This document shows positions 2,220 to 56,041 of a stretch of DNA of 64,000 bases, piece after piece. Position 1 is the stretch's first letter, and every line of letters starts with the position of its first letter. The stretch is from Brachycybe producta (taxonomy: Eukaryota; Arthropoda; Diplopoda; Playtdesmida; Andrognathidae). The stretch is taken from assembly GCA_036925085.1 (NCBI GenBank), contig JAUPFP010000019.1:4413501-4477500 (forward strand), in the 5' to 3' direction. The position numbers and the translations under genes were made by a program. The notes under the pieces are model-generated. The model had not been told where the DNA came from and did no database searches. It saw only the letters and a program-made list of their open reading frames with translations.

Positions 2220-5200
2220 ATCATTTCCTGTACCTTATCCCGCAAGCAGCAGGGTCGGCCTTGCTGGTTCTAACTCTCCACTCGTTTCCGATTTTGCACC
2301 AAGCCCCCAGTGACCCCACATGCCACCATATCCCGTTTTACTACCACATCCCAGGTTTGCTTGGGTCTTCCTCTACCCCGTTTTATTCCCAGGTCTAAGT
2401 TCATTGCCTGTCTCAGCAGCCCATCTTCTCCACTCCTGAGGACATGCCCAAACCACCGCAGCCTATTTTCCTGCATCTTTTCTACTATATTTGTTACCCC
2501 TACACTACCCCTAATAAAATCATTTCTGATCCTATCCCTTCTGGTCACCCCACTCATAAACCTTAGCATTCTCATCTCAGCTACCTGCATTCTATCCTCA
2601 TGCACCTTCTTGATTGCCCAACATTCTGACCCATACAACATAGCTGGTCTGACTACTGTTCTATAAAACTTTCCCTTCAATTTTATAGGTAACTTCCTGT
2701 CACATAAAACCCCACTAGCCTGCCTCCACCTATGCCAACCTGCTTTTATCCGGTTTGTGATGTCTAAGTCTAAGCTCCCATCATCTTGCAGCACAGATCC
2801 TAAATATTTGAAGTCATGCACCTGCTGCATTAAACTGTCCCCAAGTCTAATCCCCTCATTCAACTGTTCTTTCCCATCCCACTGAAATTTCATGTACTCC
2901 GTTTTTGCCCTACTTATTTTCAACCCCTTTGATTCCAAGGCATTCCTAGTCTCCTCTAACCTTATCTCGAGTTCCAATTTAGATTCCCCAACTAAGACTA
3001 TGTCATCTGCAAACAGCATACACCAGGGGACCTCCTGCCTCACCCCTGCCAGTAACTCATCCAGGACCAAAATAAATAGATATGGACTAAGTGCTGAGCC
3101 CTGGTGCACACCAATCCTAACACGAAAACTGTCAGAGAACCCCCAGGCAGTCTTAACGCTTGTCCGTGCATCCCTATACATGTCCCTCACCATATCTATA
3201 TAACTCTCACCCACCCCCTTCTTCTGTAAGACCTCCCACAATAACGTCCGTGGTACTCTGTCATAGGCTTTCTCTAGATCTATAAATACCATGTGTAACT
3301 CTTTCTTGGCAGCCCGAAACTTCTCAATAACTTGCCTTACGGCAAAAATGGCGTGCATTGTGGATTTTCCTGGCATAAACCCAAACTGACTTCCCCCAAT
3401 TGCAGTTTTACCCCGTAGTCGAGCTTCAATTACTCTCTCCCAAAGCTTCATCGTATGACTCATCAATTTAATACCTCTATAGTTCCCACATTCCTGAACA
3501 TCACCCTTCCCTTTGAAAATAGGCACTAACCAGCTGTCCCGCCATGCACCTGGCATTCTATCCCCCATAGCCAATCTATTGAATAACTTTGTGAGCCAGG
3601 AAATGGCAACATTCCCCAAGACCTTCCACACCTCTACTGGTATCCCATCTGGCCCTAAAGCCTTCCCTAGCTTCATTTTTTGCAATGCCTGAACAATTTC
3701 CTCAGCCCTAACCTGCTCCACTTCTTCTCTATCATTATTTCTTCCAGTGAAAGGCTCCTGCTCAACCCCCTCATTCATAAGCTTACTAAAATATCCCCCC
3801 CACCTGTTCCGTACTGACTCCCTACCCCACAATACTTTGCCCCCATTATCCTTAACACTCACCACCTTTTCAATATCTCTGCCTTTATTCTCCCGAGCCC
3901 TAGCTATTCTATATACTGCCATTTCTCCTGCTCTGGTACCTAACTTGGCATACATGTCCGCATATTTCTTATGCTTTGCTATGGCTACCTGCTGTTTGGC
4001 CTCTATCTTGGCACGCTTGTATTCTATCTGGGCCTCCCTGCTTCCATCGTGCCACCAAGTCTTGAAAGCATCTTTCTTCTTTTTAACTGCCATCTGTACC
4101 TCCTCATCCCACCACCAAGTTTCTCTGTCTAATCGAGACCCCCCTACTCGTACTGTCCCTAGTACCTCGTTTCCACAATCACGGATCTGTTGGGCTACCC
4201 TTGTCCACAGCTCTCCTGCAGTGCCATCTAAATCCCATGCTATCTTACCTGCCACTTTCTTAAACTCTTCCACCTTGTCTGGTAATGCCCACCACCTAAT
4301 TGCTGTCTCTCCTCTATGTCTGACCACCTGTTTTGCACCCCTAGGTTTTAGGTCTAACACTACTAGCCTATGTTGTCCCGCTAAGTTTTCACTCGGTATC
4401 ACTTTACAATCCTTGCACTCGTTTCTATCCTCACTTCGAATCATGAAGAGATCAATCTGGGATTCTCCTGCCCTGCTCTTAAAAGTAATCAAATGTTCCT
4501 CTCGCTTCTGGAATAGTGTGTTTGCTAAAATTAACTTATGTGCCACTGCTGCCTCCAGGATACTTTCCCCTGCTTTATTTCGCTCTCCATAGCCCCACCC
4601 ACCATGTACCTCTTCATACCCTTCCCTACCTCTACCTACATGTCCGTTAAAGTCTCCACCAATTATGACCCGTTCCTTCCTACTCAGGCCCAACATTAGG
4701 TCATCAAACTGTTCCCAGAATTCTAGCTTCCTGGCTGTATCTAATCCAACCTGGGGGCCATATGCACTAACTACATTTATAACAATGCCACCCCAAACTA
4801 CCTTTACTACTAACAGCCTACTATTTATCCGCCTAACCTCAACCACACTATGTCTGAGTTCCTGATCTAGGACAATTCCCACTCCATTTCTACCCTCCTC
4901 ACTACTTGCATAAATTAATTTATACCCATCCCCAATGTCCCTGGATTTATCCCCTTTCCATCTTGTCTCCTGCAGACATGCAACATTTACCCTCCTAGCC
5001 TTTAGAACACTAGATAACTCCCTAGTCTTCCCTGTCAAACTCCCTATATTCCAAGTGCCAAACCTAAGTTTAGTACCTCCACTTCTACCACTACTTCCAA
5101 GACCTCCTTGTTGATGCTGGACTCGCTTCTTTAGCCCCACCCGTCCACTGTGGGGTAGCCCTTGCCAATTTGTCACAGCCACCGGGCGTTGCAGCTGCGC

Positions 5201-5464
5201 GTCGCTTATGGCGGGGGACGCCCTAGCCATATTCGGAAAACTATTTCGAACCAACATCATATGTTTTGGCAAATCTTTACAACCGGCTGCCAACCTGACG
5301 TCGACCCTCCACTTTTGCACCCGGGCTGGGGGACCGGCAATGGCGTGGTTTGGTTTTGGTCTGCCCTGAGTATTTTATGCCCTCAGTACCCTCCATATCT
5401 GGCGGGCATTCCCCTATCCGCCACCTGGGGAGGCACCCGATAGGGGACCAACTACCCCCATCAT
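2220..5464 (-). mobile_element. RTE-type LINE, nearly intact
   Basis: A 3.2-kb minus-strand element. Its 3' end is the RTE signature: gggataagg followed by an atgatgatgat tail (plus strand 2212-2245). It is flanked by the 8-bp duplication ctatcatc at 2212-2219 and 5465-5472, although the tail makes the left border ambiguous. The interrupted host sequence is the older CR1/Jockey-like LINE, which reads through across the insertion. It contains one long open reading frame and short untranslated ends. Confidence 0.88.
2270..5320 (-). CDS. RTE LINE ORF: endonuclease plus reverse transcriptase
   Basis: An uninterrupted 1016-codon frame. Residues about 85-330 are an apurinic-type endonuclease: GTWNIGSLTG, then QETRWKG with the catalytic glutamate, YGPQV, GGDFNGHVG, SQIDLFMI and the final histidine in AGQHRLVVLDL. 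Residues about 540-850 are the reverse transcriptase: VPIFKGKGD, GNYRGIKLMS, QFGFMPGKST, VFIDLEKAYDRVP (motif A), GVHQGSALSP (motif B) and LFADDIVLV (motif C with both aspartates). The C-terminal region ends with a KRDMVACGV-like block typical of RTE proteins. All catalytic residues I can check are present and there is no internal stop, so this copy is recent and may have been active. The start at 5320 is the first methionine of the long frame; the first 80 or so residues have no known domain. Confidence 0.9.
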   Translation of the reverse strand: MQKWRVDVRLAAGCKDLPKHMMLVRNSFPNMARASPAISDAQLQRPVAVTNWQGLPHSGRVGLKKRVQHQQGGLGSSGRSGGTKLRFGTWNIGSLTGKTRELSSVLKARRVNVACLQETRWKGDKSRDIGDGYKLIYASSEEGRNGVGIVLDQELRHSVVEVRRINSRLLVVKVVWGGIVINVVSAYGPQVGLDTARKLEFWEQFDDLMLGLSRKERVIIGGDFNGHVGRGREGYEEVHGGWGYGERNKAGESILEAAVAHKLILANTLFQKREEHLITFKSRAGESQIDLFMIRSEDRNECKDCKVIPSENLAGQHRLVVLDLKPRGAKQVVRHRGETAIRWWALPDKVEEFKKVAGKIAWDLDGTAGELWTRVAQQIRDCGNEVLGTVRVGGSRLDRETWWWDEEVQMAVKKKKDAFKTWWHDGSREAQIEYKRAKIEAKQQVAIAKHKKYADMYAKLGTRAGEMAVYRIARARENKGRDIEKVVSVKDNGGKVLWGRESVRNRWGGYFSKLMNEGVEQEPFTGRNNDREEVEQVRAEEIVQALQKMKLGKALGPDGIPVEVWKVLGNVAISWLTKLFNRLAMGDRMPGAWRDSWLVPIFKGKGDVQECGNYRGIKLMSHTMKLWERVIEARLRGKTAIGGSQFGFMPGKSTMHAIFAVRQVIEKFRAAKKELHMVFIDLEKAYDRVPRTLLWEVLQKKGVGESYIDMVRDMYRDARTSVKTAWGFSDSFRVRIGVHQGSALSPYLFILVLDELLAGVRQEVPWCMLFADDIVLVGESKLELEIRLEETRNALESKGLKISRAKTEYMKFQWDGKEQLNEGIRLGDSLMQQVHDFKYLGSVLQDDGSLDLDITNRIKAGWHRWRQASGVLCDRKLPIKLKGKFYRTVVRPAMLYGSECWAIKKVHEDRMQVAEMRMLRFMSGVTRRDRIRNDFIRGSVGVTNIVEKMQENRLRWFGHVLRSGEDGLLRQAMNLDLGIKRGRGRPKQTWDVVVKRDMVACGVTGGLVQNRKRVES

Positions 5465-7429: not shown

Positions 7430-8447
7430 CTGCTAGTGTTTTGAGCCTCTACGAATGTTTATGAACCTCTTGCAGTGTTCCTGACCTTCTAGGACTGTTT
7501 CTTATTCTTTACTAAAGATTCTGAGTATATATTCTGAGTGTTTCTAAACCTTTAGGTGTGTCTGTAATTTTCTATTAGTGTTTCTGAGCCACTAGGAGTG
7601 TTTCTGAGCCACTAGGAGTGTGTCTGAGCCTCTATGAGTGTTTCTGAGCCTCTAGGAGTGTTTCTGAGCCTCTAGGAGTGTTTCTGAGCCTCTAGGAGTG
7701 TTTATGAGCCTCTAGGAGTGTTTATGAGCCTCTAGGAGTGTTTCTGAGCCTCTTGGAGTGTTTCTGACCTTCTAGGAGTGTTTCTGAGCCTCTAGGAGTG
7801 TTTCTGAGCCTCTAGGAGTGTTTCTGAGCCTCTAGGAGTGTGTCTGAGCTTCTAGGAGTGTGTCTGAGTCTCTAGGAGTGTGTCTGAGTCTCTAGGAGTG
7901 TGTCTGAGTCTCTAGGAGTGTGTCTGAGGAACTAGGAGTGGGTCTGAGTCTCTAGGAGTGGGTCTGAGTCTCTGGGAGTATGTCTGAGTCTCTAGAAGTG
8001 GGTCTGAGTCTCTGGGAGTGGGTCTGAGTCTCTGGGAGTGGGTCTCAGTCTCTGGGAGTATGTCTGAGTCTCTAGGAGTGTGTCTGAGTCTCTAGGAGTG
8101 TTTCTGAACCTTAGGAGTGTTTCTGAACCTGAGGAGTGTTTCTGAACCTGAGGAGTGTTTCTGAACCTCTAGTAGTGTCTGTAGTTATCTAGGCATCTTT
8201 CTGAGCCTCGAGGATTCTTTCTTAATGTTTATGAATGTTTCTGAGTCACTGAGGGTATTTTTGAGGCTCTAGTAGTACTTTTACAATTATTTCTGAAACT
8301 CCACGAGTGTTTCTAAGTGTTTAAAAGTGTTTCTTAGCTTCTAGAACCGTTTCTGAGTCTTTTGAAGGGATTCTGAGCATAGATCAGTTTTTATAAATCT
8401 TTAGGAGTGTCTCTAGTTTTCTAGGAGTGTTTCTGAGCCGCTATGAG
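7430..8447 (+). repeat. 20-bp minisatellite, main array
   Basis: About 28 near-perfect copies of a 20-base unit (consensus tttctgagcctctaggagtg) run from 7560 to 8110, flanked by older and more diverged copies. Variants are clustered: GAGCC units with TTTCTGAG dominate the left half, TGTCTGAGTC units follow, then GGTCTGAGTC units. This is the pattern left by local unit duplication. The unit does not encode an open frame. The region 8048-8447 is repeated on the other side of the LTR fossil at 17059-17420. Confidence 0.9.
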
Positions 8448-9290
8448 TGTGACAACCCAGTTTTGCTCTTTAGTTGGAGCTGACTAAATCTCCTGTTGTC
8501 TGCTAGGCTGGCTAATTAGCTGCCAGGCAGACGACAAAATGGCCAGCAAGGGTCACTGTCCTCCCCCAGGTGGAGCAGCCTGGGGGTATATAATGGCGGC
8601 GGCCATTATATTCTGGACAGTGTGTGTGAGACCCTTGGATGAAGGTGGATGTGTTGGTTTTGTGCTCCACTTCAACAGGTGGCCAAGATGGCCACCATTC
8701 ATCTCTTTGTTCTCTGGAGTAGAGTCATCTTTTGTGTTTTCTCTGCTGGACCACTGTCCAGCAGATTACTTGTATAATTAGTGAGTGTTTTATTCTATTC
8801 ATTTATCTTGCATAAATTATCATCTTTGGTTGGCTCTCTGCTGGATAATTTAATCCAGCAGATATTGCCTAAACAACAGGGAGTGTTTTTATTAATTTAT
8901 TAGTGAATAAATTATATCATTATTTTCACTCTCAACCACTGTGTGTCGTGTCATTCTTTGGGGAAGTTCCGCGAGGAAGGTGGGGGTTTATGGTTGGGAG
9001 TCGCCGTACCACCACCGTCCTGTTCCGGCTTGTTTCCGTCTTGTCGGCCGGTTCTTCACGCGCCGGTTTCTACGGTGGACCCATCGGGCGGTCACCGTAG
9101 GTTCTCGTCGTGGCGCGGCGGTCATCCGACCGTTGACCTTCGGCGAGGCAGGCTCCGGTTGGCCGGTGCCACCCGGACACGTCGTCAGGAGGGCAGCCTG
9201 CGTTACGATCTCGGCCCCTAACAGTCTCGATCCGGTAAGTCGGGGAAGATTTGCCGGGGTGTTGTTTCGGACCCAAGTCGGGTCGTTACA
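8448..9290 (+). repeat. 5' LTR of Ty3/Gypsy fossil 1
   Basis: Begins TGTGACAACCC and ends GTCGTTACA. It contains a TATA-like ggggtatataatgg near 8581 and matches the 3' LTR at 16214-17058 over its full length. Confidence 0.9.
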
Positions 9291-10440
9291 ATTGGTGGAG
9301 GCGCCGGGTAGCGCCACCGCTGCCGCTCTTGACGGTCGAAAGACCGTAGAAACTGTTTGCCACTGCCGGGCGTGGACTTTGTCCACAGTACAGCGGTGAA
9401 AAACAGTTTTTGACCGTGAACTTTACCGGTAGATCGGTAGTAAACCGTGGGGCACGGACATTTGTCCGTGGGACTACGGTTGAAACCAGTCTACGGCCAA
9501 GTTTACCGGTAGTATACCGTTGTCGGTGGAACTACGGTAGGAACCGGTTCACGGTCAGGGTCGGTAGACCGGAGTCATGAGTACGCCTGTAGGGCATGGA
9601 CGTTTGTCCACGGTACTACGGTGGAAAACGGCTTAGAGCGTAGTAGTCTGGTAGAGGACCGTGGGACACGGACGGTTTGTCCGTGATACCGCGGTGGTTC
9701 CCTGGGAAAGCCCTAGGTTATCCGCAAGTAGGACGGTGGGCACGGTGGCTGACCGTGCAGGACCGTTCGAAAGCGGGATAACGGTGATTTTTACCGCTAG
9801 TATACCGGTAGCACGGTGGTTTACTGTGCACGGCCGGTAGAACACGGTAAAAAGGCATTTTTACCGCAAGTAGACGGTGGACTACGGACTTTTGTTCGTG
9901 GTTTCACTGTTGGTGGACGGTAGATTACGGACGGTTGTCTGTGTATCTCTGTTCAAGGACGGTGAAAGTTACTCCTGCCGTAAATCTAACCGTGGGACAC
10001 GGACCTTTGTCCGTGATACCGTGGTTGTTTACGGTTTTACCGGTGTTTGACGGTGTGTTGCGAACTTTTGTCCGTGTATCACCGGGCAAACACGGTAAAA
10101 AAGGGAGTTTTACCGTTAGTAGATGGTGAATTGCAGACTTTTGTTCGTGAATTACCGGTCGAACACGGTAAAAAGGTAGTTTCACCGCTAGTAGACGATG
10201 GTTTGCGAACCGTTGTCCATGAATCTCTGTTCAAAGACGGTGAAAAGATACTAACCGTACGTTTACCGTAGGACACGGACATTTGTCCGTGAAACTACGG
10301 TTTGGTACGGTTCTACCGTTAATTGACGGTGATTTCTGGACTTTGGTCCGTGAATTCACCGGATTTCACGGTAGAATCTTTCACCTACTAGTGGTGGCCG
10401 TTTCTGTCCATGTTCGCACGGTGGGAATCGGCTTAAACCC
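9291..10440 (+). repeat. hairpin-repeat leader of Ty3/Gypsy fossil 1
   Basis: About eleven diverged units of 75-100 bp lie between the primer site and gag. Each carries an inverted repeat of the type acggac-ttt-gtccgt, and many carry a second one of the type accgt-tcgaac-acggt. Clear examples are near 9450, 9665, 9990, 10070, 10150 and 10275. No long sense frame spans it. The same kind of leader is seen in fossils 2 and 3. Confidence 0.82.
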
Positions 10441-13400
10441 CGTTCTCCCCGATGGTAGGTTAGGTTTAGGAGCGACTGCCAAGACTGGAGGGAAGAAGGG
10501 TAATAAGACTAGGCGGCGGAGCCCGGGTGGAAATAAGTCCACAGCAGCCCCGTCTGGGTCTGGCCAAATGGCTGTAGGTGGAGGTCCCACCCGGAAGCAA
10601 CCAGGTCCATGCTACAAGTGCGACCAAATGGGTCACTTGAAGAAGGATTGTCTGGAGGCTTTGGCCCGAGGACAGGTTGCTAGTGTGACACCTGGCAGAA
10701 GCCAGGCGGTGCTGTATGGCACGGGTCTTGTACCCGTGGTACAGCAGGACCGTGAGTGTCTGTCTACCGTAAGTAATGGACAGACATACTATCTGCCTGT
10801 TGCCAGAGACGATGGTGCGCCATCGTTAAACCGGCAACGGTCGCTGCAGAACTGAGCTGCAGTCGACCGGGTACGCTTAAAAACTCAGGTGTCCGGCAAA
10901 GCCGGCGAAGTTCGGGCAGTGTCCAAGTGCGTGGGAATCCTGCATGAAGCAGGGGTGCCTCTGGCGAGGTCTGCGGACCCGGAGATTACCCGTTGGGTGT
11001 TTCCGCAGCCATGCCCCACATTGGTTGCTGCGCTTGCCCGGCTGGAGAGCTGGGTGGCACCTTTCTTCCCTGATTGTGGGGAAGAAGGTCCAAAATGTAC
11101 GGGCATTACGAGGGCTTCGAGCGTTGCTGCGCCCATGCTGTTGCCCAGGCCTGGTAGGTCTCGTGGTTTGGAGACTGGTACCCAGACCCCCGAGCATCCG
11201 GTACGACCATCCCTTGTGAATGGGAGGACGGATGACGCTCGGAAAAGTAATGTCGGGCAACGACGGTTGCCTATACCGGAATTACAGAGCCGTGCTTATT
11301 TGCGTGGGGCACCACGTGTTCTGGTGTCGATGAATGATCGGCTGGTTGAGTCGATCGTCGCCACCCTGGTGCCGAGGTATCAGTAATGAGCATGTCGGTG
11401 GCACGGGAGATGGGGTTACCGGTGCAGGAGGTTAACCTCCCCTCATGCCTGTGTGGCATGGGCGGGTACTCCATCGTGATAGAAGGAGTCATGTACGTGG
11501 ACATGTCCATCCACAGGAGGTCCATCAGATCCCATCTTCTCATTGAGGGTGAAGGAGAAGCCATAATGGGTGTTGACCTGGCTTCTCAGTTTGGGCTGAT
11601 GGTGGACGTCGTGAGCCGGAAAATTTATTTTTGGGAAGACATCTGGACCACACATCCAGATGCTCTTCATGCTGCACTGGCCGATCAGGTGTTGCAGGGT
11701 ACTTCGGTACAGCTTCCGTACTCGTTAGTGGAGGCGTTGGCGAAGCTTCACGATTCTGTGGAGCCTCGTCTACTCCCTCCTTACGGGATACCGGAAGGGA
11801 TGCCTGCAGATCCTGGTAAGGGTAATGGGTGGGTCAACATTGTGTCGCCTGAACTCGCTGAGACCAGTTCTCCTATTAGGAGCGGGGATGTTTGTTCCCT
11901 GCGACTGTTGGAGAACGTATGGCTACCAGCTCATGAGCGGAAGGTAGTTTCTGTGAGCTTGGTAGAGCATGCTGGCCCTGGTCAGCTGCTTCTCGTAGAG
12001 CCCCATCGTAAAGCCTTAGGTGGCCGTGGTCTGTTGGCGGTGGCAGGAATTTCCGAAGCCACAGGACAAGGCACTTACGATATATGGCTTGAGAATGTTG
12101 CTGACGTTCCCATTGCCCTGGAAACGGGAGGGTGTCGCAACGGCACAAGCTGTGGAGGCAGCCATTGTGGTGGGACTGGACGGTCCATCTAAGTTGAGAG
12201 GGGGAGACCCCACTCATGGAGATGGCCGGCCATGGGGGCTTCCGTCTAAGTTGAGAGGGGCGACCAGAAAAGGTCGCCGAGTCCTCAATGCGGAAGTGAA
12301 ACCCACTCTCGAAGAGTGTCTTAAAATCGGACCTAGTCTGAAGCCTGAAGAGGCGGCACAGCTTCGGGAGTTCCTGCTAGAACGCCGTGATCATTTCGCA
12401 TTCAATTACTTAGAGCTGGGGAAACCCCGCTCGTTGAACATACGATTGATACCGGTGGGCTACCTCCGGTGCGAGAAGGATTGCGAAGAACCGCTCCGGC
12501 GGCTCATGCGATCGAGCGAGAAGAGGTAGCGAAAATGTTGGATGCAGGTGTAATCCAACCTTTGCATAGTCCTTACGCAAGCCCTATCTTACTTGTTCGC
12601 AAGAAGGATGGTGGCTTTCGTTTGTGTTGACTATCGGAGAGTGAACACCCAGACAAAGGCGGATCAGTACCCGCTACCTCGCATCGATGATGCCCTCGAT
12701 TCGCTAGCCGGAGCAAAGTATTTTGCAACCCTGGACCTTGCTAGTGGTTACTGGCAGGTCAGGATGTCGGAGCCAGACATTTAGAAGACAGCATTCATTT
12801 GCTCTCAAGGTCTGTTTGAGTTCCAAAAAATGCCTTTCGGACTCTGCAATGCTCCTGCCACTATGCAAAGAGCGTTAGACCTCTTGTTGGCAGGACACAA
12901 GTGGGAGAGCTGCTTGGTGTACCTAGACGATATTATCGTCTTTGGGAGCACCTTTGAGCAGTTTCTCGAACGCTTGAGTACTGTCCTGAGACTGTTACGG
13001 GGGCGAAGTGGGAAGTGTTTCTTCGGATTTGACAAGGTCAAATATCTCGGTCATATTGTGAGTGCCGAGGGAGTTGCTCCGGACCCTGGACTCGTGAAAG
13101 CAGTCGAAGAGTTTAGTGTTCCTACAATGGTGACTGCCGTCCGAAGTTTTCTTTGACTGGCCGGCTACTACTGTAGGTTCATTAAGGACTTCGCCAAGGT
13201 CGCAAGGCCACTGCATGATCTGACCAGGAAGGATGCGTCCTTTGACTGGTCAGAGCAGTGTGGTCTAGCGTTTGAGCGGTTAAAGGCATTTTTAACCGAA
13301 GCACCGGTGCTCACTATGTATGATCCACGTGGTGAGGTGTTAATTCACACCGATGCGAGTGGGTACGGTCTAGGTGTTGTAGTATACCAGAAGCTACCTG

Positions 13401-16190: not shown

Positions 16191-16213
16191 CGGATCAGGG
16201 AAGTTGAGAGGAT

Positions 16214-17058
16214 TGTGACAACCCAGTTTTGCTCTTTAGTTGGAGCTGACTAAATCTCCTGTGTTGTCTGCTAGGCTGGCTAATTAGCTGCCAGGCAGAT
16301 GACAAAATGGCCAGCAAGGGTCACTGTCCTCCCCCAGGTGGAGCAGCCTGGGGGTATAAAATGGCGGCTATTATATTCTGGACAGTGTGTGTGAGACCCT
16401 TGGATGAAGGTGGATGTGTTGGTTTTGTGCTCCACTTAAACAGGTGGCCAAGATGGCCACCATTCATCTCTTTGTTCTCTGGAGTAGAGTCATCTTTTGT
16501 GTTTTCTCTGCTGGACCACTGTCCAGCAGATTACTTGTATAATTAGTGAGTGTTTTATTCTATTCATTTATCTTGCATAAATTATCATCTTTGGTTGGCT
16601 CTCTGCTGGATAATTTAATCCAGCAGATATTGCCTAAACAACAGGGAGTGTTTTTATTAATTTATTAGTGAATAAATTATATCATTATTTTTCACTCTCA
16701 ACCACTGTGTGTCGTGTCATTCTTTGGGGAAGTTCCGCGAGGAAGGTGGGGGTTTACGGTTGGGAGTCGCCGTACCACCACCGTCCTGTTCCGGCTTGTT
16801 TCCGTCTTGTCGGCCGGTTCTTCACGTGCCGGTTTCTACGGTGGACCCATCAGGCGGTCACCGTAGGTTCTCGTCGTGGCGCGGCGGTCATCCGACCGTT
16901 GACCTTCGGCGAGGCAGGCTCCGGTTGGCCGGCACCACCCGGACACGTCGTCAGGAGGGCAGCCCACGTTACGATCCCGGCCCCTAACGGAGTCTGGATC
17001 TGGTAAGTCGGGGAAGATTTGCCGGGGTGTTGTTTCGGACCTAAGTCAGGTCGTTACA
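16214..17058 (+). repeat. 3' LTR of Ty3/Gypsy fossil 1
   Basis: Begins TGTGACAACCC after a purine-rich tract (gaagttgagaggat) and ends GTTACA. It is a full-length match to the 5' LTR with about 20 differences by eye. Confidence 0.9.
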
Positions 17059-17535
17059 GTGTGTCTGAGTCTCTGGGAGTATGTCTGAGTCTCTAGGAGT
17101 GTTTCTGAACCTGAGGAGTGTTTCTGAACCTGAGGAGTGTTTCTGAGCCTCTAGTAGTGTCTGTAGTTATCTAGGCGTCTTTCTGAGCCTCCAGGATTCT
17201 TTCTTAACATTTATGAATGTTTCTGAGTCACTGAGGGTGTTTTTGAGGCTCTAGTAGTACTTTTACAATTATTTCTGAAACTCCACGAGTGTTTAAAAGT
17301 GTTTCTTAGCTTCTAGAACCGTTTTTGAGTTTTTTGAAGATATTCTGAGCATAGATCAGTTTTTATAAATCTTTAGGAGTGTCTCTAGTTTTCTAGGAGT
17401 GTTTCTGAGCCGCTAGGAGTGTCTCTAGTTTTATAGAAATATTTCTGAGCCGCTAGGAGTGCTTCTGAGCCGCTAGACCTATTTTTCAGCCTCTGGGGGT
17501 GTTTCTGAGCCTTTTGGAGTGTTTCTGAGTTCATA
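17059..17535 (+). repeat. 20-bp minisatellite right of fossil 1, duplicate of the left flank
   Basis: 17059-17420 repeats 8048-8447 almost unit by unit, including unique landmarks such as gtagttatctaggc, cagtttttataaatcttt and gaaactccacgagtg. The LTR fossil is thus flanked by a direct repeat of about 370-400 bp. The array then continues for about 100 bp before it reverses. Confidence 0.85.
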
Positions 17536-39865: not shown

Positions 39866-40620
39866 ATTGGTGGAGGCACTGGGTAGCGCTACCGCCAGCC
39901 TCTCTTGTGCAGTCGGTAAGACCGGAGTCGTGACTACGCCGGTAGAAATGCTGAAAGCGGCTGAGGGCGTAGTAGTCCGGTGAAGGACCGTGGGATACCG
40001 TGGTGGTCACCGGGGAAAGCCCTAGGCTATCAATAAGTAGGACGGTGGGCACGGTGGTTGACCGTGCAATACCATCTGAACGCGGGGTAGTGGTACTTTG
40101 ACCGTTTATTGTCCGTGGGACAGGGGGTACACCGTGGAACTACGGCGGAAACCCGTTTATGGACAGGTTTACCGGTGATATACTGTGGGACACGGACCGT
40201 TGTTCGTGAAACCGGCTTAGGGTCAGGTTTTACCGTAAGTAGACGGTGGTTACGGACTTTTTCCGTGTATCACCGTTCGAACACGGTAAACAGGTGATTT
40301 CACCGTTGGTGGACAGTAGATTACGGACCGTTGTTCGTGTATCTCCGTTTGAGGACGGTGGAAGGTCAATTTTACCATAAGTAGATGGTGAATAACGGAC
40401 TTTTGTCTATAGATCACCGTTCGAACACGGTAAAAAGTACTCCAACCGTGAATTTAACCGTGGGACACAGATTTTTATCCGTGACACCATGGTTATTTAC
40501 GGTCCTGCCGCTAATTGTCGTTGTTTTGCAGACTTTTGTCCGTAAATTCACCGTATTTTATGGTAGAGTTCCCTCCAAATAAGTGGTGGCCATTTCTGCC
40601 CGTGTTTCCACGGATGAAAT
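39866..40620 (+). repeat. hairpin-repeat leader of fossil 2
   Basis: Repeated units with acggac..ttgttcgtg, acggacttttgtc and caccgttcgaacacggtaaa occur at about 40190, 40250, 40330, 40395, 40465 and 40530. Organisation is the same as in fossil 1. Confidence 0.8.
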
Positions 40621-54978: not shown

Positions 54979-55559
54979 GCGCCTTCATGCATGGGCGACA
55001 GTGAAAACCGAGGATCCACCCTCGGCTCAATCGCCGACCAGGACAGCTGTCCTTCCAACCGAAGGACATCTATCCCGTAAGCAATCTCTATGAGTTGCTG
55101 CTCGGACAGCCCGGCCAAAAAGGCCTGGCCCTCATGCAGTCTCATGCTGGATTTCCACCATGTCCCGATGGAGTTGACCGCCATGTCCAACCGGATGGCC
55201 GGCAGTGGAAACTTGGACATTCGGCCGTGGCCGATCGTCCTCCCCAAGGAGATCACCATCGGATCCACTGTCTTCTAACGTGTATTCTCCTGGAAGAATG
55301 TCACTGCGGCGTTTCCGCACCGTGACCTATTCATCCGGGAAATCCCCGTCTACGCTACCGCCGTGTCCGCCTGTCTCCAGGGGGACTCTGCCTTTCGCCC
55401 AAGGGGACGGTCGACTACGCACCTGCGTAACTCCAAACCCTTGTCTGCTCCAATTTCCCGACCTTCCGTCGGTACTCTTGGAGTTGGCTCCATTTTTCAC
55501 CGTAAATAAACGGTAAAATCCGGACAAAACCACCAGGTAGCGGATTTCCACCGACGAAA

Positions 55560-56041
55560 ACGGTGATCTCACAAACAAAAGTCTGTAAGCGACCGTAACG
55601 AACGGATGGGACCATGCGAAACCGCGGTATCACGAACAAACGTCCGTGTCCCATGGTGAGGAATGGTCAGAGTTTGACCCTACAGGTTTCTACCGTGGTA
55701 TATAGGACAAAAGTCCATCTCCCACGGTGTACTTCTCGGTAAACAACCTTCTTACCACTTTCGACCACGATGCCACGGACAAAGTCCGTACCCCACGGTG
55801 TACTTATGGTAAAACACCGCACACCACCAGAAACCACGGTACAACAGACCGTAGTCCGCTCCCCACGGTAAATCACAGTAAAAATACGGTAAAACAGTGA
55901 CTTCTGCCGCTGTCCCACGGTTTAAAGTCCGCGCCCAGCTGCGTACTCGCACTGTGCGGTGATTCGGCCGACTAAACGGTCGAATCCACGGTAATTAACC
56001 GTGCGAGAGATGGGGTACAGGTACCCGGCGTCTCCACCAAT
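55560..56041 (-). repeat. hairpin-repeat leader of fossil 3
   Basis: On the minus strand, units such as tacggactttgtccgtgg, cacggacgtttgttcgtg and cttacagacttttgtttgtg recur between the primer site and gag, like fossils 1 and 2. Confidence 0.78.

What the first reader, a model, noticed from the sequence alone, without database searches (positions are those of the whole stretch)
9291..10440. Array of hairpins in the leader of a Ty3/Gypsy family
Between the primer site and gag, three independent fossils (9291-10440, 39866-40620 and 55560-56041) carry tandem, diverged 75-100 bp units. Each has one or two short perfect or near-perfect inverted repeats (acggac/gtccgt and accgt/acggt). Paired changes within arms appear in places (for example gttcgtg or gtctgtg variants). 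Inference: a structured RNA leader, perhaps for packaging, translation or pairing. I know of no named family with such a leader.
Basis: partly seen in the sequence, partly recalled or inferred. Interest (0 to 1): 0.75.

Follow-up and report, generated by a model that had tools for sequence, protein, structure and literature searches.

The report
RNA hairpin array in retrotransposon leader
A family of virus-like jumping genes in what is probably a millipede genome carries, ahead of its first gene, a long row of similar hairpins whose two arms changed together in evolution, which points to a real folded structure, probably in the RNA, whose job is still unknown.

Summary
Three Ty3/Gypsy copies in the window carry, between primer site and gag, a row of similar hairpins about 72 nt apart. 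In the genome (295 Mb; cox1 closest to millipedes) the inner palindrome occurs 2341 times against 9 for the control, and 68 of 69 leaders examined have at least three in about their first 640 nt. Each unit is a three-tier arm: a nearly invariant inner stem with a tetraloop, a covarying outer stem, and a basal stem. Exchanging halves between units weakens folding (0 of 2000 permutations as good). That test does not choose the strand. A lean to the sense RNA comes from shared changes that favour G-U over A-C (67:36). The leader avoids ATG (0 in 1207 nt in L017, 7.6 expected), so ribosomes probably scan it. Function is not shown. I favour a repeated element of the genomic RNA, most likely for Gag binding and packaging (about 0.37); translation control, RNA export and a DNA element remain open. 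Tandem-repeat leaders are known in Drosophila Ty3/Gypsy elements; my searches found no report of an array of covarying hairpins. Real; a new variant of a known kind.

The parts
8077..9290 (+). 5' LTR of copy a (at least this part); a 20-bp tandem array lies at 7435-8276
   Evidence: 8445-9290 matches 16211-17058 at 97.1%, 8077-8450 matches 17058-17422 at 92.8%; tandem array
9293..9310 (+). primer binding site of copy a, matching the 3' end of tRNA-Ala(AGC)
   Evidence: 520 sites in the genome with at most one mismatch, 0 for the control; 12 nt of the complement are seen at the 3' end of tRNA-Ala genes (the letters beyond were not printed)
9291..10451 (+). leader of copy a: hairpin array between primer site and gag ATG (10452)
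   Evidence: fold z -12.9 on 9291-10290; sequence; model hits
9440..9483 (+). hairpin unit, 62.2 bits
9581..9625 (+). hairpin unit, 31.8 bits
9654..9698 (+). hairpin unit, 48.2 bits
9870..9913 (+). hairpin unit, 33.4 bits
9985..10028 (+). hairpin unit, 55.8 bits
10119..10162 (+). hairpin unit, 31.5 bits
10261..10304 (+). hairpin unit, 55.7 bits
10322..10365 (+). hairpin unit, 20.6 bits
   Evidence: weaker matches start at 9358, 9501, 9917, 10046 and 10191 (E 0.03-0.62)
10452..10855 (+). remnant of gag of copy a: ATG, then a deletion of most of gag, then the zinc knuckle
   Evidence: zf-CCHC in the frame 10283-10855; deletion between 10460 and 10469, junction found once in the genome
16211..17422 (+). 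3' LTR of copy a (at least this part)
39866..40620 (+). leader of copy b with decayed hairpin units (40178, 40239, 40309, 40453 at E<0.01)
   Evidence: fold z -6.8
55557..56041 (-). leader of copy c with five hairpin units at E<0.01 (55618, 55689, 55761, 55830, 55903) and a weak one at 55557
   Evidence: fold z -4.8 on the minus strand

Best explanation
The leader is a selected, modular folded structure of a Ty3/Gypsy retrotransposon family, most likely acting in the sense RNA. About 7 to 12 three-tier stem-loop arms stand in a row between primer site and gag. Shown here: the array is present in 68 of 69 leaders examined, the two halves of each arm covary, and the 5' region avoids ATG. Favoured but not proven: the structure is that of the sense RNA. 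Inferred: capped full-length RNA is scanned through the leader to the gag AUG, and the arms form a repeated (multivalent) binding platform that marks the full-length RNA, most likely for Gag during packaging, since the array sits where retroviral packaging signals sit. Unit number changes in steps of one arm, probably by slippage in reverse transcription.
For: Location between PBS and a gag ATG whose open frame carries Retrotrans_gag. 2341 inner palindromes against 9 for the control. 68 of 69 leaders have at least 3 units in about the first 640 nt; model matches per leader run from 7 (L051) to 12 (L007) among those counted. Chimera test on 85 distinct units: native -19.6 against -16.7 kcal/mol, 0 of 2000 permutations. 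Third tier, 40 units: -12.5 against -10.1, 0 of 2000. Pair counts on 20 units: 94.3% paired against 90.4% in shuffles (0 of 500) and 29-48% slid. One-step changes from a Watson-Crick pair, G-U to A-C: 150:121 for variants in one copy, 44:26 in 2-3, 23:10 in 4 or more; shared together 67:36, p 0.003 against 1:1. Per-column rates of the same transitions are about equal in unpaired leader columns (ratio 1.00-1.03) and in gag (0.83-0.95) but 1.28 (single) and 1.57 (shared) in stem columns. ATG: 0 in the 1207 nt of L017 against 7.6 expected, 0 of 500 shuffles, CAT not depleted. The inner stem is nearly invariant, a possible recognition element.
Against: No binding, packaging or expression data. The compensation test is as strong on the antisense strand (gain 2.19 kcal/mol, z -8.3, against 2.83, z -8.7, in sense), and the antisense strand also folds better than shuffles, so these do not separate RNA from DNA. 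The wobble lean is not significant in singletons (p 0.09), the rise from single to shared is not significant after correction (p 0.10), and shared U5 variants lean the same way (ratio 1.35). Raw G-U over A-C counts in class II outer stems (62:11) are no evidence, since slid registers reach 107:38 and 25:4. Excess folding continues into gag (z -2.0 to -11.9 in the 15 of 16 leaders where computed). Counts between subfamilies are noisy: L017 to L040 had 6 double changes that keep a pair and 12 that break it. Class I units at one fixed offset were not clear (78 of 1000). Some sublineages have an upstream ATG (876-878 in 7 of 29 fam0 copies and about 949 in 3; for those before the PBS). The inner stem was used to pick units, so its conservation is partly by choice of data.
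Confidence: 0.37

Rival explanations
1. Translation control: the arms slow, pause or reroute scanning ribosomes (shunt or internal entry) and so set the ratio of Gag made to RNA packaged.
For: ATG avoidance in the 440 nt before the PBS (0.31 per copy against 3.70 shuffled in fam0) and in the leader (1.59 against 8.71) suggests that ribosomes meet this RNA. The last arm ends about 80-100 nt before the gag ATG.
Against: Avoidance of ATG is the mark of plain scanning; internal entry would not need it. Scanning alone does not explain why many similar arms are kept.
Confidence: 0.22
2. RNA export or stability element: repeated arms bind a host export or double-strand RNA-binding protein, like the transport elements of simple retroviruses.
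For: Conserved stems with a repeated asymmetric 2x3 internal loop. Repeated internal loops are known from the MPMV transport element (recalled, no call).
Against: Internal-loop letters are variable (mean entropy 1.46 bits against 0.47 in the inner stem).
Confidence: 0.15
3. DNA element: an array of protein-binding palindromes or cruciform-prone repeats, with a role like the Su(Hw) insulator in the 5' UTR of gypsy or the insulator of ZAM.
For: Same place and same tandem layout as the known insulators; nearly invariant palindromic core; compensation is equally strong on either strand.
Against: Lean to G-U over A-C among shared changes (67:36). A site for a DNA-binding dimer should keep its letters, not covary, but the outer stem covaries. 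No Su(Hw) site, TGCATA core or TERM motif (up to 2 mismatches) in about the first 640 nt of 69 leaders, both strands; other binding proteins are not excluded.
Confidence: 0.13
4. By-product: hairpin-prone sequence amplified by reverse-transcriptase slippage, without function.
For: Copies differ by whole units; for example L034 lacks one 72-nt spacing of its subfamily.
Against: Compensatory changes and ATG avoidance point to selection; the layout is kept across three subfamilies that are hard to align.
Confidence: 0.07

Closest known systems
gypsy and ZAM (also Idefix) insulators of Drosophila Ty3/Gypsy elements
   Same: tandem repeats in the 5' UTR of a Ty3/Gypsy element; 19 of 49 Drosophila LTR-retrotransposon 5' UTRs tested are tandemly repeated (PMC8872304: abstract and two sections seen); the gypsy insulator has 12 Su(Hw) sites (PMC2374998: passages)
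   Different: those are described as DNA-protein sites; here the unit is a covarying hairpin arm, and Su(Hw) and TERM motifs were not found
Retroviral packaging signal (psi)
   Same: structured RNA in the 5' UTR, bound through the NC domain of Gag (PMC5035970: start of abstract in the listing)
   Different: psi is a few distinct stem-loops (recalled, no call); here one kind of arm is repeated about 7 to 12 times. Gag binding was not tested
MPMV constitutive transport element and IAP RNA transport element (recalled, no call; the search found 0 papers)
   Same: stems with repeated internal loops in retroelement RNA
   Different: location and number of units; internal loops here vary in sequence

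Membership tests
Ty3/Gypsy LTR retrotransposon | paired LTRs | tested here: met
   copy a, 97.1% over 851 bp; in the stretches compared nothing for copy b and only a 36-bp match for copy c
Ty3/Gypsy LTR retrotransposon | tRNA primer site just after the 5' LTR | tested here: met
   (tRNA-Ala)
Ty3/Gypsy LTR retrotransposon | gag, RNase H and integrase domains of the Ty3/Gypsy type | tested here: met
   Retrotrans_gag in L009; zinc knuckle, RT_RNaseH and Integrase_H2C2 in copy a; Ty3 Gag-Pol is the best match among solved structures; relatives named 412 and 17.6. A tree to place the clade was not built
gypsy-type insulator | tandem repeats in the 5' UTR | tested here: met
gypsy-type insulator | Su(Hw) binding motif | tested here: not met
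   0 in about the first 640 nt of 69 leaders, both strands
gypsy-type insulator | enhancer-blocking activity | not testable with these tools
   needs a reporter assay
retroviral-type packaging signal | conserved structure between primer site and gag | tested here: met
retroviral-type packaging signal | the structure is that of the sense RNA | tested here: inconclusive
   lean to G-U among shared changes 67:36, but compensation is equal on both strands
retroviral-type packaging signal | Gag binding and RNA packaging | not testable with these tools
   needs binding and packaging assays
any RNA family in Rfam 15 | match above the gathering score | tested here: not met
   none in the window; in the leader of copy a and in L017, L040 and L051 only miRNA models far below threshold

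The most novel reading that the evidence does not exclude
A retroelement that carries a modular, countable RNA scaffold: the same three-tier arm repeated about 7 to 12 times in a scanned leader, kept by compensatory evolution and tuned by gain and loss of whole arms, as a multivalent site for recognition of its genomic RNA. No described retroelement leader that I know of works this way.
Probability: 0.3. Interest if true: 0.75.

Novelty: new variant of a known kind. Interest (0 to 1): 0.57.

Why it matters
How Ty3/Gypsy elements of animals recognise their own RNA is, to my knowledge, poorly understood, and the papers on tandem-repeat leaders that I saw read them as DNA insulators. This family, with 520 primer sites in one genome and at least three subfamilies, offers a clear case in which the repeat is a folded structure under selection, so its role can be tested by removing arms, re-pairing them or changing their number.

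Tried and rejected
Subfamily-to-subfamily pair counts from single copies (7 comparisons) were noisy. Double changes that keep against break a pair were 6:12, 14:3, 7:1, 11:2, 6:5, 4:0 and 1:0, and slid registers were often not far behind. Counts over many copies gave 11 kept against 2-5 slid (reference L017) and 11 against 4-9 (reference L057), but single changes that break a pair were not fewer than in slid registers for L057 (36 against 30-47). A first sorting of units mixed the two classes and was replaced.

Strand test: I first compared G-U and A-C changes in stems with raw counts of the same transitions outside stems (and the Fisher tests). That comparison is unsound, because the sense strand is rich in G and T and so gives fewer C>T and A>G by composition alone. 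Normalised per column the background is near 1:1, and I now use 1:1.

Within-unit pairing of the basal arms was better than pairing with the next unit in 28 of 40 cases. A non-autonomous lineage founded on copy a was rejected: its gag-deletion junction occurs once in the genome at up to 3 mismatches. Rfam gave nothing above threshold. An exact unit pattern had 0 matches in viral contigs.

Literature: searches showed no paper on an array of hairpins in a Ty3/Gypsy leader. I saw listings only (10 of 69 papers, 5 of 8, 10 of 29, all in the others), passages or sections of PMC8872304 and PMC2374998, and passages of PMC7523956, in which the word gypsy does not occur. Only open-licence PMC papers were searched.

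Left out of counts: L029 (primer site with more than 3 differences), L002, L005, L046 and L052 (same places as L035, copy a, L034 and L008), L001, L003 and L004 (no primer site, or the same place as L035). Of 520 primer sites, 69 leaders were examined, the three window copies included. The 20 units were picked by eye from 37 printed and are mostly class II.

Full report
What is there. The window lies at C19:4413501-4477500 of a 295.3 Mb assembly. Its mitochondrial cox1 (contig C442), read with the invertebrate code, is closest to millipedes (Abacion 90%, Antrokoreana 89%, Narceus 88%), so the host is very probably a millipede; the species was not identified. Copy a of the element has LTRs that are 97.1% identical over 851 bp, a primer site matching tRNA-Ala, a leader, a gag remnant with a zinc knuckle, and a frame with RNase H and an integrase zinc-binding domain. 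That frame finds proteins named transposon 412 and 17.6 and the Ty3 Gag-Pol structure. Copy b (39866, +) and copy c (56041, minus strand) have the same kind of leader.

The array. The inner palindrome ACGGAC-N4-GTCCGT occurs 2341 times in the genome against 9 for the reversed control, and the primer-site pattern 520 times (up to one mismatch) against 0. I examined 69 leaders: the three window copies and 66 others. In 68 of 69 there are at least three inner hairpins (up to 2 mismatches) in about the first 640 nt (760 and 490 nt for copies b and c), mean 5.3; the exception, L044, has one there and further units on the other strand nearby. Spacings of 70-73 and 61 nt recur, with wider gaps between blocks. 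With a model of the unit at E up to 0.1, L051 has 7 units, L061 8, L040 9, L017 11 and L007 12. Of 59 leaders clustered, 29, 15 and 11 fall in three subfamilies and 4 stand alone, copies b and c among them. Between subfamilies 0 and 1 the best local match has a median of 117 nt, so the shared layout outlasts the alignable sequence.

The unit. In L017, L057 and L051 the inner stem (6-7 bp, tetraloop), an outer stem (6-8 bp) beyond an asymmetric internal loop, and a basal stem have high pairing probability in nearly all units; the unit at 264 of L051 is the exception. Mean entropy over 85 units, in the register of class II, is 0.47 bits in the inner stem, 0.96 in the outer stem, 1.14 in the tetraloop, 1.46 in the internal loop and 1.66 in the flanks. 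The inner stem was used to pick the units, so its value is biased low.

Folding. The window leaders have z -12.9 (first 1000 nt of copy a), -6.8 and -4.8. In 16 leaders with local folding (span 120) the sense z runs from -3.8 to -16.8 and the antisense z from -3.8 to -15.1. So z does not tell the strand. Excess folding continues into the start of gag (z -2.0 to -11.9 in the 15 of 16 that could be computed; profile).

Compensation. Among 85 distinct units from 12 leaders, native halves fold at a mean of -19.6 kcal/mol and exchanged halves at -16.7 (0 of 2000 permutations; within class II, 50 units, 0 of 2000; within class I, 28 units, 5 of 2000). Class II outer stems are 90.6% paired, against 86.9% with 3' halves permuted (1 of 1000) and 29-57% slid. 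Class I at one fixed offset was not clear (64.3% against 62.5%, 78 of 1000; slid +1 63.1%). On 20 units picked from 37, 5 pairs have changes on both sides (2.2 in shuffles, reached by 1 of 500), and paired cells and covariation score exceed all 500 shuffles and all slides. The basal stem is better within its own unit than with exchanged arms (40 units, -12.5 against -10.1, 0 of 2000). Between subfamilies 0 and 2, double changes that keep a pair number 11 against 2-5 in slid registers (reference L017) and 11 against 4-9 (reference L057).

Which strand. The exchange test gives nearly the same result on the antisense strand (gain 2.19 against 2.83 kcal/mol, z -8.3 against -8.7), so compensation alone does not separate RNA from DNA. 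A one-step change from a Watson-Crick pair to G-U keeps pairing in the sense RNA and one to A-C breaks it; a Watson-Crick pair has equal chances of both, so the null is 1:1. Within the three subfamilies the counts are 150:121 for variants in one copy (p 0.09), 44:26 in two or three, 23:10 in four or more (p 0.035), and 67:36 for all shared variants (p 0.003), with the reference required to carry the common pair. Rates per column of the same transitions are about equal in unpaired leader columns (ratio 1.03 single, 1.00 shared) and in gag (0.95, 0.83), mixed in U5 (0.78, 1.35), and 1.28 and 1.57 in stem columns. The difference between single and shared variants is not significant (p 0.10). Variants share ancestry, so the p-values are approximate. 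From single-copy comparisons the sum is 98:55 over 7 overlapping pairs, and 54:34 (p 0.04) over four less overlapping ones (counts, p-values). I read this as a moderate lean to the sense RNA.

Ribosomes. L017 has no ATG in the 1207 nt from primer site to gag ATG; 500 shuffles have a mean of 7.6 and never 0, while CAT is not depleted (6 against 4.5). Over the copies, ATG per leader is 1.59 against 8.71 shuffled (fam0, 29 copies), 3.27 against 7.48 (fam2, 11) and 1.07 against 4.25 (fam1, 15); in the 440 nt before the primer site 0.31 against 3.70, 2.45 against 4.93 and 0.60 against 4.23. Copies with a shortened leader also count their gag ATG here, which works against the result. An ATG taken as the gag start is shared by 14 of 14 fam2 copies (923) and 21 of 21 fam1 copies (631; in 7 of the 21 a long open frame is in phase with it), and in these two subfamilies no ATG upstream of it in the leader is shared by more than 2 copies. 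In fam0 an ATG at 876-878 is shared by 7 of 29 and one at 949 by 3. The last ATG before the primer site is at -254 to -269 in 6 of 11 fam2 copies and at -300 to -303 in 6 of 29 fam0 copies. Because units are related by descent, the effective length of the test is smaller than it looks; the U5 region is independent of the array and agrees. So the 5' region is probably scanned.

Function. The data show a selected folded structure in a probably scanned leader; they do not show what binds it. Position and repetition favour recognition of full-length RNA by Gag. Translation tuning and RNA export or stability remain. A DNA element is less likely, because the outer stems covary, the shared changes lean to G-U, and Su(Hw) and TERM motifs are missing, but it is not excluded.

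Comparison. Tandem repeats in Ty3/Gypsy 5' UTRs are known: the gypsy insulator has 12 Su(Hw) sites (PMC2374998, passages), and 19 of 49 Drosophila LTR-retrotransposon 5' UTRs are repeated, with ZAM acting as an insulator (PMC8872304, abstract and two sections). Those are treated as DNA elements. My searches, listed in Tried and rejected, showed no report of repeated hairpins with compensatory changes in such a leader, and Rfam has no match.

Noticed in passing
window 10460-10469, copy a: Most of gag is missing directly after the ATG (10460 matches L009 2727, 10469 matches L009 4147); the junction occurs once in the genome.
   Followed up: yes
window 7435-8276 and 17058-17529: The LTR carries a 20-bp tandem array (about 35 copies in the 5' LTR; shorter arrays on the 3' side).
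   Followed up: no
L080-L082 (C15, about 61.6-65.6 kb): Cluster of tRNA-Ala(AGC) genes on both strands, 6-7 per 3 kb; the 3' end of some matches the primer site. One of the ten pattern matches (C1:13915923) is the primer site of L056 itself.
   Followed up: partly
G000:C1:12697416-12698753 and pieces on C17: Further cox1 matches in large contigs, probably nuclear copies; the C1 one is nearly full length with one TAA.
   Followed up: no
window 2270-5320, minus strand: Open frame of 1016 aa with endonuclease and reverse transcriptase domains, a LINE-like element.
   Followed up: no
L009, L017, L040 and L051, start of gag: Excess folding also inside the start of gag (z near -6 in some 120-nt windows).
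   Followed up: partly
L044: Hairpin units on the opposite strand to the primer site, as if part of the array were inverted.
   Followed up: no
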